Origin: Sphingomonas sp.
GTDB lineage: Bacteria > Pseudomonadota > Alphaproteobacteria > Sphingomonadales > Sphingomonadaceae
Direction: 5' to 3'
DNA: 64,000 nucleotides
NCBI GenBank assembly: GCA_025936675.1
Contig: JAICSX010000003.1
Location: 36,974 to 100,973, forward strand
Shown here: in pieces, positions 11,463 through 20,226 of the stretch
Layout: every line of letters begins with the position of its first letter
How positions within the stretch are numbered: position 1 is the stretch's first letter
Position numbers and translations under genes: made by a program
The notes under the pieces: generated by a model
Seen by the model: the letters and a program-made list of their open reading frames with translations, nothing else
The model's database searches: none
What the model was told of the DNA's origin: nothing

Positions 11463-12186
11463 AGCTGCCAACGGCAAGTTGCGGGTCGCGGCGATCGGCG
11501 ACCTTCACGTGATGGAGGACAGCGTCGCCCCCTATCGCGAGCTGTTCACGGAAATCTCCAACGCCGCCGACGTCTTGGTGCTGTGCGGCGATCTCACGAA
11601 CTTTGGCAAGACCAGCGAAGCGGAGATCCTCGCCGACGACATTCGCTCGTGCAGCATCCCCGTGCTCGGCGTCCTCGGCAATCACGATTATGAATGCGGC
11701 CAGCCGGAGAAGGTTTGCGAGATCCTGACCGCTGCCGGCATGAAGGTGCTCGACGAACAGGCTGTCGAGATCGACGGCGTCGGCTTTGCCGGGGTGAAAG
11801 GCTTCCTTGGCGGGTTCGGCAGGGGCGAACTGGCTCCGTTCGGGGAGCCGATCGTGAAGGCGTTCGTCGACGAGGTGATGAGCGAATCGCGCAAGCTCGA
11901 GAACCAACTGAGGACGCTGCGCACGGACCGCAGCGTCGCGGTTCTCCATTATTCGCCGATCGAGGGCACGATTGAGGGGGAACCGCCGGCGATCTTCCAA
12001 TATCTCGGCTCGCAGCGCCTGTGCGAGCCGATCGACCGCTTCGACCATGTGAAGGCGGTGGTTCACGGTCATGCGCACCACGGCACCTACGAAGGCCGCA
12101 CGCCGCTCGGCCGGCCCGTCTACAATGTCGCGCAGTTCGTGCTGAAACCGTTGTTCGGCAAGCCCTACGTCGTGCTGGAAATCTAA
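11449..12186 (+). CDS. Calcineurin-like metallophosphoesterase paired with the nucleotidyltransferase
   Basis: A 245-aa cytoplasmic protein with every block of the calcineurin-type fold in order: IGDLHV (D-x-H), LCGDLTNFG (GD), GVLGNHDYE (GNHD), VLHYSPI and VHGHAHHGTY (GHxH). The two-metal centre therefore looks intact. Such enzymes cut phosphomonoesters, phosphodiesters or nucleotides. Tight coupling to a nucleotidyltransferase suggests that it reverses, processes or limits the partner's product, but no substrate can be named. It ends in a 4-base stop overlap with the convergent E2 gene. Confidence 0.8.
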   Translation: MPATEAANGKLRVAAIGDLHVMEDSVAPYRELFTEISNAADVLVLCGDLTNFGKTSEAEILADDIRSCSIPVLGVLGNHDYECGQPEKVCEILTAAGMKVLDEQAVEIDGVGFAGVKGFLGGFGRGELAPFGEPIVKAFVDEVMSESRKLENQLRTLRTDRSVAVLHYSPIEGTIEGEPPAIFQYLGSQRLCEPIDRFDHVKAVVHGHAHHGTYEGRTPLGRPVYNVAQFVLKPLFGKPYVVLEI

Positions 12187-13385
12187 GCCGGCGGCCAGCT
12201 TTCGAGAATTTCCACGAAGCGACTGAGCCAGGCGTTCGTCTGGTGGCCGTCCACGACTCTGTGGTCGATGGTTAGCGTCACATAGGCCATCGGATGAATG
12301 AGCATGGCGTCGCAGCCGTGCACCGTTCGCACGATCACCCGCTTTTGGAGCTTGCCGACGCCGAGGATCGCCGCCTGCCCCTGGTGAAGGATGATCGGTG
12401 CCGCGAGCAGTGACCCCGAAACGCCATGGTTCGAGATGGTGAAGCTTCCGCCGGACACATCTGAGCGCTCGAGCTTGCCGTCGCGGGCGCGGCTTGTGAG
12501 GTCGTCCAGTTTCGCGCCAATCTGCTCAAGGCTGAGCGAGCCCGCGTCCTTCACGACTGGCACGACGAGGCCCTTCTCGCCGAGCGCGGTGCCGATGCCG
12601 ATGTCGATCGTCGGCGAGATGGCGATCCGGTCCTTCTCCCAGCGGCCGTTGATTGCGGGCGCGACAGCCATCGCTTCGGCGGCGGCCTTGACGATGTATG
12701 CGGTGTAGCTGAGCTTCACCCCGCGTGCCGCCAATGCCGCCTTGTGCGCGGAGACAGCCGAGAAATCTGCTTCGAACACGGCGGTCACATGCGGCGCTTC
12801 GCTCACCGCGCGAACCATGTTCTCGGCGATCGTGAGCCGCATGCGGTCGTGCGGTATGTCATGCGACGCGAACTGCCGCGGCTGCGAGGTTGAAGGCTCG
12901 CCAACGCTGACGACGGTCGCCGATGCGACGGCACGATCCACGTCCTCGCGGGTCACACGTCCGTTGCGGCCGCTCCCCTGAATGCGGCTTGGATCAATTC
13001 CGTTCTGCAGGCACGCGCGCCGGACGGAGGGGCTGAGGCGAGACTCTACGTGCCCCTGCGAACGCAGGGGCCCAGTCGGGCGGAGCGCTTCAGCACGAAC
13101 ATCGATTGCTCGCGCTAGATGCTCGGTCTGGGCTCCCGCCTTCGCAGGAGCACCATCGGTGCTGATCCTCGCCAGCAGCGCTCCAGGCACCGCCTCTGCG
13201 TCAGTATCCAGCACGATCTCCGCAAGCACCCCCGCAGCGGGCGCGGGAACCTCCTGCGTCACCTTGTCGGTCTCGAGCTCGACCAGAGGGTCGTTCTCCG
13301 CCACCGCATCGCCGACCTGCTTGAGCCACGCGCGGACGACGGCCTTGGTGCCCTCCTGCTCGTCAGGAACGCGGACTTCGATCAA
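12183..13385 (-). CDS. Dihydrolipoamide acyltransferase (E2) of a 2-oxo acid dehydrogenase complex
   Basis: E2 carries the acyl group on lipoyl-lysine and passes it to CoA. The lipoyl domain contains ELETDKVTQEVPAP with the modified Lys. A linker of about 60 residues leads to an E3/E1-binding domain (SPSVRRACLQNGIDP ... GRNGRVTREDVDRA). The catalytic domain ends in TIDHRVVDGH. The frame is open upstream to an ATG at 13448 inside E1, but the protein begins naturally at IEVRVPDEQEG. A TTG at 13385, two bases after the E1 stop, is the likely start and gives 400 aa. Last gene of the paa operon described here. Branched-chain or aromatic 2-oxo acids are both possible substrates. Confidence 0.88.
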   Translation of the reverse strand: MIEVRVPDEQEGTKAVVRAWLKQVGDAVAENDPLVELETDKVTQEVPAPAAGVLAEIVLDTDAEAVPGALLARISTDGAPAKAGAQTEHLARAIDVRAEALRPTGPLRSQGHVESRLSPSVRRACLQNGIDPSRIQGSGRNGRVTREDVDRAVASATVVSVGEPSTSQPRQFASHDIPHDRMRLTIAENMVRAVSEAPHVTAVFEADFSAVSAHKAALAARGVKLSYTAYIVKAAAEAMAVAPAINGRWEKDRIAISPTIDIGIGTALGEKGLVVPVVKDAGSLSLEQIGAKLDDLTSRARDGKLERSDVSGGSFTISNHGVSGSLLAAPIILHQGQAAILGVGKLQKRVIVRTVHGCDAMLIHPMAYVTLTIDHRVVDGHQTNAWLSRFVEILESWPPA

Positions 13386-13387
13386 CT

Positions 13388-18792: not shown

Positions 18793-19769
18793 GCGGCCTT
18801 CCTCTCGCGCCGCTTCGCTTCATGCGCCGCGGCAGCTTCGCGCACCCATGCGCCCTTCTCCCATGCCTCGCGCCGCGCCTTCATGCGTTCCTTGGCGACC
18901 GGGCCTTCGCCGCGGACTACCGCGTAGAATTCTTCCCAATCGATGGTGCCGAAATCGTAGCCGCCCTTCTCCCCGTTCCACTTGAGGTCCGGGTCCGGCA
19001 CCTTCAGCCCAAGGAAGTCCGCCTGCGGGACGGTGATGTCGACGAACTTCTGCCGGAGTTCGTCATTGGTCTCGCGCTTGATCCGCCAGCGCATCGACTG
19101 CGCCGTGTTCGGGCTGTCGGCGTCCGGCGGGCCGAACATCATCAAGCTCGGCCACCACCAGCGGTCGAGCGCGTCCTGCGCCATCCTTTTCTGTTCGGCC
19201 GTGCCGTTGGCGAGCGCGATCATGATCTCGTAGCCCTGGCGCTGGTGGAAGCTCTCCTCCTTGCACACTCGAACCATCGCGCGGGCATAAGGCCCGTAGC
19301 TCGTCCGCTGCAGCGGCACCTGGTTCATGATCGCCGCGCCGTCGACTAGCCAGCCGATCGCGCCGATGTCCGCCCAGGTCAGCGTCGGGTAATTGAAGAT
19401 GGTGGAGTACTTGGCTTTTCCGCTGTGAAGCGCCTCGATCATCTGCTCGCGGCTCGTGCCGAGCGTCTCTGCAGCGCAATAGAGGTAGAGCCCGTGGCCC
19501 GCCTCGTCCTGCACCTTGGCGAGCAGGATCGCCTTGCGCCGCAATGACGGCGCGCGCGTGATCCAGTTGCCCTCCGGGAGCATGCCAACGATCTCGCTAT
19601 GCGCATGCTGGCTGATCTGCCGCGTCAGCGTCCGCCGGTAAGCCTCGGGCATCCAGTCCTTCGGCTCGATGAAATCGTCGGCGGCAACCCGCGCCTCGAA
19701 TGCCTCGAGAAGCTTCGGGTCCTCGAGATTTTCGATCTTGGCCGTCTTCTGAAGCTCGGTCGTGTACAT
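18789..19769 (-). CDS. paaA: Phenylacetyl-CoA 1,2-epoxidase catalytic subunit PaaA
   Basis: 326 aa. PaaA holds the di-iron site that inserts oxygen into the ring of phenylacetyl-CoA to give the 1,2-epoxide. Iron ligands are visible in KVQDEAGHGLYLYCAAE (E-x2-H) and in CKEESFHQRQGYE (E-x2-H). The N-terminal DWMPEAYRRTLTRQISQHAHSE is typical, including the phenylacetyl-CoA-binding region. It is first of the epoxidase genes, 31 bases after paaI. No separate promoter is evident in that gap, so it probably belongs to the paaI transcript. Confidence 0.96.
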   Translation of the reverse strand: MYTTELQKTAKIENLEDPKLLEAFEARVAADDFIEPKDWMPEAYRRTLTRQISQHAHSEIVGMLPEGNWITRAPSLRRKAILLAKVQDEAGHGLYLYCAAETLGTSREQMIEALHSGKAKYSTIFNYPTLTWADIGAIGWLVDGAAIMNQVPLQRTSYGPYARAMVRVCKEESFHQRQGYEIMIALANGTAEQKRMAQDALDRWWWPSLMMFGPPDADSPNTAQSMRWRIKRETNDELRQKFVDITVPQADFLGLKVPDPDLKWNGEKGGYDFGTIDWEEFYAVVRGEGPVAKERMKARREAWEKGAWVREAAAAHEAKRRERKAA

Positions 19770-19800
19770 GGCTGCGATGTAGTCCGTGCGCGGTTAACGT

Positions 19801-20226
19801 TCAAATCTCGACGACAGCTCCGCCGAGCGTTCGCGAATAGCCGGTGAACTCGGCGATCGTCCGGCCGTCGCTGGTGCGCACCGTTACGCGCGTCACTCCG
19901 CTACGGCCCGCAGTTGCCGCCTCCTCGCCTTCGGCAACCAAAGTTTCGCCCTCGGTCGCGCTGCCAAGGAAGATGATTCCCGCCTGCGCTGCGACGGTCT
20001 TCTCGTTCTTACCGTTGCAGACATAAGCGAACGCAGTGTCGGCGAGTGCGAACACCATGCCGCCGTGGACGATCCCGTGGCCGTTGAGCATGTCGGCGCG
20101 GACCTTCATCGACAGCCGCGCATGGCCCGCGCGCGCTTCCTCGATCCGGATGCCCCACGCCGGGCCGGTGCCCTCGGCGGCGAGCATCGCGCGCGCCACC
20201 CGGTTCGCGAGTTCGTTTGCGTCCAC
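19801..20226 (-). CDS. paaI: Hydroxyphenylacetyl-CoA thioesterase PaaI
   Basis: A 141-aa hotdog-fold thioesterase. LNGHGIVHGGMVFALADTAF holds the catalytic and CoA-binding core. PaaI hydrolyses aromatic acyl-CoA thioesters that would otherwise trap CoA when the pathway stalls. It is first gene of the minus-strand run paaI-A-B-C-E-aminotransferase-E1-E2. Its start is only 26 bases from the paaG start on the other strand, so its promoter must lie at least partly within the paaG coding region. Confidence 0.9.
   Translation of the reverse strand: MDANELANRVARAMLAAEGTGPAWGIRIEEARAGHARLSMKVRADMLNGHGIVHGGMVFALADTAFAYVCNGKNEKTVAAQAGIIFLGSATEGETLVAEGEEAATAGRSGVTRVTVRTSDGRTIAEFTGYSRTLGGAVVEI

What the first reader, a model, noticed from the sequence alone, without database searches (positions are those of the whole stretch)
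12183..20226. Phenylacetyl-CoA epoxidase operon carries its own aminotransferase and 2-oxo acid dehydrogenase
Seen: paaI-paaA-paaB-paaC-paaE-aminotransferase-fused E1-E2 run on one strand, with no gap above 31 bases from 20226 to 12183. Known: class I aromatic aminotransferases make phenylpyruvate; E1/E2 complexes turn 2-oxo acids to acyl-CoA; PaaABCE acts on phenylacetyl-CoA. Inference: phenylalanine goes to phenylpyruvate, then by oxidative decarboxylation straight to phenylacetyl-CoA, with no free phenylacetate and no PaaK ligase (none is in the window). That would save two ATP bonds and make NADH. A branched-chain or general role for E1/E2 is the rival idea.
Basis: partly seen in the sequence, partly recalled or inferred. 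Interest (0 to 1): 0.85.

Follow-up and report, generated by a model that had tools for sequence, protein, structure and literature searches.

The report
Phenylacetyl-CoA operon with built-in keto-acid dehydrogenase
A group of sphingomonad bacteria appear to turn phenylalanine straight into phenylacetyl-CoA with a dehydrogenase complex placed inside the ring-opening operon, having lost the usual ATP-spending ligase, which predicts that they can eat phenylalanine but not free phenylacetate.

Summary
The operon is real: paaI-A-B-C-E, an aromatic-type aminotransferase, a fused alpha-beta E1 and a separate E2, one strand, longest gap 31 bases. In all 27 E1-only genomes E1 lies within 10.6 kb of paaA; none has the PF20169 ferredoxin-oxidoreductase domain; all have a separate branched-chain E1-alpha far from paa. 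E1-E2 adjoin paa genes in several arrangements. Best reading: phenylalanine to phenylpyruvate to phenylacetyl-CoA, replacing PaaK. No substrate was assayed. The direct reaction is known for another enzyme (Ior1) and suggested for PglB/C, so this is a new variant of a known kind. Caveats: the window's own genome is not held; most relatives also keep a homogentisate route.

The parts
19801..20226 (-). paaI, hydroxyphenylacetyl-CoA thioesterase (hotdog)
   Evidence: TIGR02286 132.7 bits, over cut-off
18789..19769 (-). paaA, phenylacetyl-CoA epoxidase subunit
   Evidence: TIGR02156 527.1 bits
18508..18792 (-). paaB (TTG start overlaps paaA stop; stop overlaps paaC start)
   Evidence: TIGR02157 143.3 bits for 18514-18786; ends read
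17747..18508 (-). paaC
   Evidence: TIGR02158 251.5 bits
16673..17746 (-). paaE, reductase; no paaD between paaC and paaE
   Evidence: TIGR02160 409.3 bits, slightly under cut-off 420.8; junction
15454..16653 (-). class I aromatic-type aminotransferase (ORF extends to a TTG at 16695)
   Evidence: NF006719 463.1 bits; best PDB match aromatic amino acid aminotransferase 1ay4, 338.8 bits
13388..15445 (-). fused E1-alpha/beta of a 2-oxo acid dehydrogenase complex, 685 aa; proposed phenylpyruvate dehydrogenase E1
   Evidence: PF00676, PF02779, PF02780; below cut-off for the pyruvate-dehydrogenase models listed
12183..13385 (-). E2: lipoyl, E3-binding and acyltransferase domains (ORF extends to 13448)
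   Evidence: PF00364, PF02817, PF00198; start read
20253..21032 (+). paaG, divergent (ORF from 20217)
   Evidence: TIGR02280 358.2 bits, over cut-off 345.15
26088..28160 (+). paaZ, ring-opening bifunctional enzyme
   Evidence: TIGR02278 996.4 bits

Best explanation
The operon is a phenylalanine-to-ring-opening module. Step 1 (inferred from family): the aminotransferase turns phenylalanine into phenylpyruvate. Step 2 (inferred from comparative genomics): the fused E1 decarboxylates phenylpyruvate on thiamine diphosphate and passes the phenylacetyl group to the lipoyl arm of E2, which moves it to CoA; a general E3 encoded elsewhere reoxidises the lipoyl group and makes NADH. Step 3 (family function known from other bacteria): PaaABCE epoxidises phenylacetyl-CoA, then PaaG and PaaZ isomerise and open the ring. 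PaaI probably clears hydroxyphenylacetyl-CoA made from tyrosine by the same steps (inference). In this clade the complex has taken the place of PaaK, so free phenylacetate should not be an intermediate or a good growth substrate.
For: (1) Same order paaA-B-C-E-AT-E1-E2 in 28 of 80 loci; AT within 1 kb of E1 on the same strand in 48 of 80; a paa gene in the fetched flank in 52 of 80. (2) 297 genomes of the order: E1 found in 34 of 58 PaaA genomes and 0 of the other 239; within the 58, E1 and PaaK tend to exclude each other (27 E1 only, 18 PaaK only, 7 both, 6 neither; Fisher p = 5e-5, not corrected for kinship). (3) PF20169, a domain of fused indolepyruvate ferredoxin oxidoreductases (link recalled): 0 of these 27, but 4 of the 6 'neither' genomes. 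(4) Separate branched-chain E1-alpha domain in 27 of 27, at least 198 kb from paaA (20) or on another contig (7); the one checked is of branched-chain type. (5) The complete genome of S. daechungensis (L047/G019) has the operon and no PaaK match, though its E1 aligns in two pieces. (6) Different paa linkages elsewhere: E2 ends 21 bases before paaA in L064, E1 follows paaE by about 100 bases in L091, E1-E2-AT lie next to paaZ in L050, L060 and L078; the paa-linked label needs 12 changes on the tree, at least 9 forced by well-supported branches. (7) paaD is found elsewhere in all 58 PaaA genomes.
Against: No biochemical or growth data. The window's own genome is not held, so PaaK absence there is inferred from relatives. 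Relatives of E1-E2 in Rhizobium and most of the Pseudomonas loci have no paa gene in the fetched flank, and the genomes tested there do have PaaK, so the family may have a broader or other substrate. The E1 beta half is about as similar to branched-chain (232 bits) as to pyruvate (256) and other 2-oxo acid dehydrogenase (239) chains. 7 of 34 E1 genomes keep PaaK. Most of the 27 also have a hydroxylase/homogentisate route. A different CoA ligase could replace PaaK unseen: only TIGR02155 was searched, and in the order-wide searches only the best 5 (PaaK) or 3 (E1) candidates of many genomes were scored. A KorA-like oxidoreductase is in all 33 genomes tested. PaaE falls just below its model cut-off.
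Confidence: 0.78

Rival explanations
1. The E1/E2 complex is a branched-chain or general 2-oxo acid dehydrogenase that happens to sit in the paa operon; the JGI name for many close relatives is '2-oxoisovalerate dehydrogenase E1 component'.
For: Source names among the best 120 relatives. An Lrp-type regulator is found by similarity in 35 of 80 loci, as in branched-chain operons (recalled). 4 of 23 further genomes (G029, G031, G033, G035) carry the fused E1 without PF12573. Beta half is 232 bits to a branched-chain beta chain.
Against: All 27 E1-only genomes have a separate branched-chain E1-alpha domain. Fused E1 lacks PF12573 and its alpha half scores 53 bits to 1qs0_A against 542 for the branched-chain subunit of G145. 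Its tie to PaaA in 297 genomes is not expected for branched-chain breakdown.
Confidence: 0.1
2. The complex is a broad arylpyruvate dehydrogenase: phenylpyruvate, 4-hydroxyphenylpyruvate and indolepyruvate all serve, and PaaI removes the CoA esters that cannot be epoxidised. (A wider form of the best explanation, not exclusive of it.)
For: paaI leads the operon; class I aromatic aminotransferases take several aromatic amino acids (recalled); Ior1, an indole oxidoreductase, accepts phenylpyruvate (passage in PMC5577590).
Against: No other aryl-acetate degradation gene is seen in the operon; not tested directly.
Confidence: 0.35
3. PaaK has been replaced by an unrelated CoA ligase or CoA transferase, and E1/E2 serve another need.
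For: Only TIGR02155 was searched for ligases; other AMP-forming ligases give weak matches (mostly 20-35 bits).
Against: No ligase was seen in the operon or among the window ORFs scanned (not every ORF); it does not explain why E1/E2 and the aminotransferase are in the operon.
Confidence: 0.1

Closest known systems
PaaK phenylacetate-CoA ligase plus PaaABCE/G/Z (phenylacetyl-CoA catabolon)
   Same: PaaABCE, PaaG, PaaZ, PaaI present and phenylacetyl-CoA is the entry point
   Different: No PaaK seen in the window ORFs scanned or in 27 of 34 E1-bearing genomes sampled; entry by a dehydrogenase complex is proposed instead
Ior1 oxidoreductase of Phaeobacter (passage in PMC5577590; direct conversion also in passages of PMC7497051)
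   Same: Converts phenylpyruvate directly to phenylacetyl-CoA, by-passing free phenylacetate
   Different: Ferredoxin-linked enzyme of another family (recalled); PF20169 absent from the 27 genomes. Here an NAD-linked E1/E2 complex is proposed
PglB/PglC of Streptomyces pristinaespiralis phenylglycine synthesis (passages in PMC7089894)
   Same: Pyruvate-dehydrogenase-like alpha and beta subunits suggested to turn phenylpyruvate into phenylacetyl-CoA
   Different: Antibiotic synthesis, separate subunits; here a fused E1 with its own E2 in a catabolic operon. Sequences were not compared
Branched-chain 2-oxo acid dehydrogenase (bkd)
   Same: Same enzyme superfamily and complex plan; beta half 232 bits to a branched-chain beta chain
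   Different: Fused E1, no PF12573 domain, weak similarity of the alpha half; a separate branched-chain E1-alpha exists in the relatives

Membership tests
PaaABCE phenylacetyl-CoA epoxidase | PaaA, PaaB, PaaC above curated cut-offs | tested here: met
   TIGR02156/02157/02158 over cut-off
PaaABCE phenylacetyl-CoA epoxidase | PaaE reductase above curated cut-off | tested here: inconclusive
   409.3 bits against 420.8, full length 1-352 of 352
PaaABCE phenylacetyl-CoA epoxidase | PaaD assembly protein in the genome | tested here: inconclusive
   Not in the operon; TIGR02159 over cut-off in 58 of 58 PaaA genomes, but the window's own genome is not held
2-oxo acid dehydrogenase complex (E1/E2) | E1 thiamine-diphosphate domains; E2 lipoyl, E3-binding and acyltransferase domains | tested here: met
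   PF00676, PF02779, PF02780; PF00364, PF02817, PF00198
2-oxo acid dehydrogenase complex (E1/E2) | An E3 available in the genome | not tested
   None seen among the window ORFs scanned; not searched in relatives. A shared E3 is common (recalled)
Pyruvate dehydrogenase E1 | Score over NCBIfam equivalog cut-offs | tested here: not met
   TIGR03181 128.3 against 411.35; NF008854 214.6 against 454
Branched-chain 2-oxo acid dehydrogenase | PF12573 N-domain and close similarity to branched-chain E1-alpha | tested here: not met
   PF12573 absent; 53 bits to 1qs0_A
Aromatic amino acid aminotransferase | NF006719 over cut-off | tested here: met
   463.1 bits against 377; the subfamily may include aspartate-active enzymes (recalled)
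Phenylpyruvate dehydrogenase (proposed) | Oxidative decarboxylation of phenylpyruvate to phenylacetyl-CoA | not testable with these tools
   Needs enzyme assay
Indolepyruvate ferredoxin oxidoreductase route | PF20169 protein present | tested here: not met
   0 of 27 E1-only genomes

The most novel reading that the evidence does not exclude
The fused-E1 family, widely named 2-oxoisovalerate dehydrogenase, is an arylpyruvate dehydrogenase family. Starting as a stand-alone E1-E2 unit, often beside an Lrp-type regulator, it joined an aromatic aminotransferase in sphingomonads and then entered the paa operon, after which its clade lost PaaK, the ferredoxin route and the regulator, closing the phenylacetyl-CoA pathway to free phenylacetate.
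Probability: 0.45. Interest if true: 0.75.

Novelty: new variant of a known kind. Interest (0 to 1): 0.62.

Why it matters
It would give an NAD-linked, ATP-saving entry to a main aerobic phenylalanine ring-opening pathway, explain PaaABCE genomes that lack PaaK, correct a common annotation (2-oxoisovalerate dehydrogenase E1 component), and give a clean growth prediction (phenylalanine yes, phenylacetate no) in named isolates such as Sphingomonas hankyongi (G001), S. cremea (G007) or S. caseinilyticus (G008), all E1-only.

Tried and rejected
Own-genome search: no genome held. Literature: 8 searches of the held library listed no paper that I could see to describe an E1/E2 complex in phenylalanine catabolism feeding PaaABCE; most listed papers were seen as listings only and the library lacks most subscription papers, so this is not proof of absence. 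PMC9493321 gave only reference-list passages; passages of PMC9281055 describe a paaK-bearing Sphingobium paa operon. PF01558 was not specific enough: it rings a KorA-like protein of about 620-840 aa frame in 33 of 33 genomes. The hand-written motif patterns were of little use (one matched 0 of 81, one 21 of 81), so no pocket-residue argument is made. Structure prediction was not run because a model would not settle the substrate. The promoter scan found nothing and does not cover other promoter types. Considered: that paa linkage is only inherited gene order; set aside because arrangements differ, though the unlinked rows include short contigs. L072 (Pseudomonas) was flagged as window-type by the strand test, but an ORF that hits the Lrp query lies between paaZ and E1, so it is not counted among the 28. 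My first thought that Rhizobium loci also have the Lrp-type neighbour was not borne out: the Rhizobium rows L046, L049, L054, L067 and L073 have no hit.
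Full report
Observation. The window holds, on the minus strand from 20226 to 12183, paaI, paaA, paaB, paaC, paaE, a class I aminotransferase, a 685-residue fused E1-alpha/beta and an E2. Reading the junctions gives a longest gap of 31 bases and two overlaps, with no terminator-like site on that strand. E1 and E2 are separate proteins; what is fused is E1-alpha with E1-beta. paaG runs divergently and paaZ lies about 6 kb away. 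No PaaK, ferredoxin oxidoreductase or E3 was seen among the window ORFs scanned (not every ORF was scanned). paaD is missing between paaC and paaE.

Conservation. A scan of species genomes with the E1 gave 457 relatives, the best 80 kept. In 28 of the 80 the order is as in the window; in 48 of 80 the aminotransferase lies within 1 kb of E1 on the same strand; in 52 of 80 some paa gene lies in the fetched flank. Several contigs are short, so 52 is a lower bound. In a tree of 81 E1 proteins the window falls in a clade of 29 rows, all paa-linked (SH-aLRT 100), on a long stem; the label 'paa-linked' needs 12 changes, of which well-supported branches force at least 9. Arrangements differ: E2 ends 21 bases before paaA in L064, E1 follows paaE by about 100 bases in L091, and E1-E2-AT lie next to paaZ in L050, L060 (Caulobacteraceae) and L078 (Hyphomonadaceae).

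PaaK test. In 35 genomes that hold fused E1 (35 of the 80 loci were given), PaaK (TIGR02155) passes its cut-off in 17 and narrowly misses in one (G023, 638.5 of 646.3 bits); 16 have only weak matches, and G019, the complete genome of S. daechungensis, has none. In a sample of 297 genomes of the order of G001 (asked for at 90% completeness or more; the tool did not print completeness), PaaA is over cut-off in 58, PaaK is found in 25 (24 over cut-off) and fused E1 in 34, and every PaaK and E1 genome is a PaaA genome. The 58 split into 27 with E1 only, 18 with PaaK only, 7 with both and 6 with neither. The Fisher test (p = 5e-5) takes no account of kinship. In many genomes only the best 5 (PaaK) or 3 (E1) candidates were scored. 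In all 27 E1-only genomes E1 lies within 10.6 kb of paaA; among the 7 with both, three are on one contig (5.4, 11.8 and 36.6 kb) and four on different contigs.

Other routes. PF20169, found in fused indolepyruvate ferredoxin oxidoreductases (link recalled), occurs in 26 of the 58: 0 of the 27 E1-only genomes, 4 of the 7 with both, 18 of the 18 PaaK-only genomes (in some only in frames of about 500 aa) and 4 of the 6 with neither. In those last 4 the same frames also hold a POR domain. Thus 56 of 58 have PaaK, fused E1 or PF20169. The two left are G057, whose PaaA is divergent (423 bits; 59% identity), and G183. That PF20169 goes with PaaK and not with E1 fits either two interchangeable direct routes or simple kinship. 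A KorA-like protein occurs in all 33 genomes tested and is uninformative.

Branched-chain rival. PF12573 (OxoDH_E1alpha_N) is present in 27 of 27 E1-only genomes and 46 of 58 overall; in the 27 it is at least 198 kb from paaA (20) or on another contig (7). One such protein (L082, from G145) scores 542 bits to 2-oxoisovalerate dehydrogenase alpha chains 2bp7/1qs0; the alpha half of the fused E1 scores 53 bits to the same chains and 110 bits to the 2-oxo acid dehydrogenase chain 1um9. The beta half does not discriminate: 256 bits to a pyruvate dehydrogenase chain, 239 to 1um9, 232 to branched-chain 2bp7/1qs0. In 23 other genomes with fused E1, 19 have PF12573 and 4 do not, so outside sphingomonads the complex may serve more widely.

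Context of relatives. An Lrp-type regulator (query taken from L045) is found by similarity in 35 of 80 loci, on the minus strand upstream of E1 or of AT-E1 in 33 of these; it is found in 0 of the 28 window-type loci and not in the Rhizobium rows named above (ORFs). A simple history fits: Lrp|E1-E2 (for example L059, L075), then Lrp|AT-E1-E2 (for example L045), then entry into the paa operon with loss of PaaK and of the regulator. This is inference. paaD is over cut-off elsewhere in all 58 PaaA genomes; in the two regions read it lies beside an ORF whose first residues look like a thiolase, named by eye and not scanned.

Limits on physiology. 23 of the 27 have a phenylalanine hydroxylase domain and 21 of 27 homogentisate dioxygenase, so the operon is often a second phenylalanine route. 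G199 has neither, and there the operon would be the only one of these routes.

Known relatives. Direct conversion of phenylpyruvate to phenylacetyl-CoA is described for Ior1 of Phaeobacter (passage in PMC5577590), and direct conversion in Phaeobacter also in passages of PMC7497051. PglB/PglC, pyruvate-dehydrogenase-like, are suggested to do the same in phenylglycine synthesis (passages in PMC7089894). GapMind's paper names phenylacetate or phenylacetyl-CoA as common intermediates of phenylalanine breakdown (passages in PMC9007349). Eight searches of the held library showed no E1/E2 complex placed in phenylalanine catabolism with PaaABCE.

Verdict. It is a new variant of a known kind: known chemistry, known families, a new enzyme choice and operon design, with a sharp growth prediction.

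Noticed in passing
window 16673-18508, and the 28 window-type loci: paaD is missing between paaC and paaE in the window; paaC and paaE matches also lie too close for it in the window-type loci. It is present elsewhere in the relatives' genomes, in the two regions read beside an ORF that looks like a thiolase.
   Followed up: partly
L047 (S. daechungensis, E1 near 10001-12054): E1 aligns in two pieces and its frame is short (574 residues), suggesting a frameshift or sequence error in a complete genome.
   Followed up: no
window 22225-24479 (-): An APH-family kinase-like gene followed by an acyl-CoA dehydrogenase, with an SDR gene overlapping on the other strand: resembles ACAD10/11-type 4-hydroxyacid pathways (recalled).
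   Followed up: no
L064, 9545-16927: E1-E2-paaA-paaB-paaC-paaE on one strand with 21 bases between E2 and paaA: a second way of joining the complex to the epoxidase genes.
   Followed up: partly
L072 (Pseudomonas sp. RIT-PI-S), 1613-13289: A PaaK-like ORF (named by eye; its place fits the TIGR02155 hit of G034), paaABC, paaE and paaZ are followed by a divergent ORF that hits the Lrp query and then E1-E2, so both entry routes seem to lie side by side in a gammaproteobacterium.
   Followed up: partly
G183 and G057 (L089, L090): PaaA genomes with no PaaK, fused E1 or PF20169 found; G057 carries a divergent paaA-B-C cluster in an unusual context.
   Followed up: partly
L046 (Rhizobium altiplani), 5995-9187: In this Rhizobium locus no Lrp-type hit was found near E1-E2 and the ORFs upstream look like cell-division (min) genes by eye, so the setting differs from the other stand-alone units.
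   Followed up: no
window 59154-60005 (+): A further enoyl-CoA hydratase/isomerase-family gene (PF00378) far from the paa genes.
   Followed up: no
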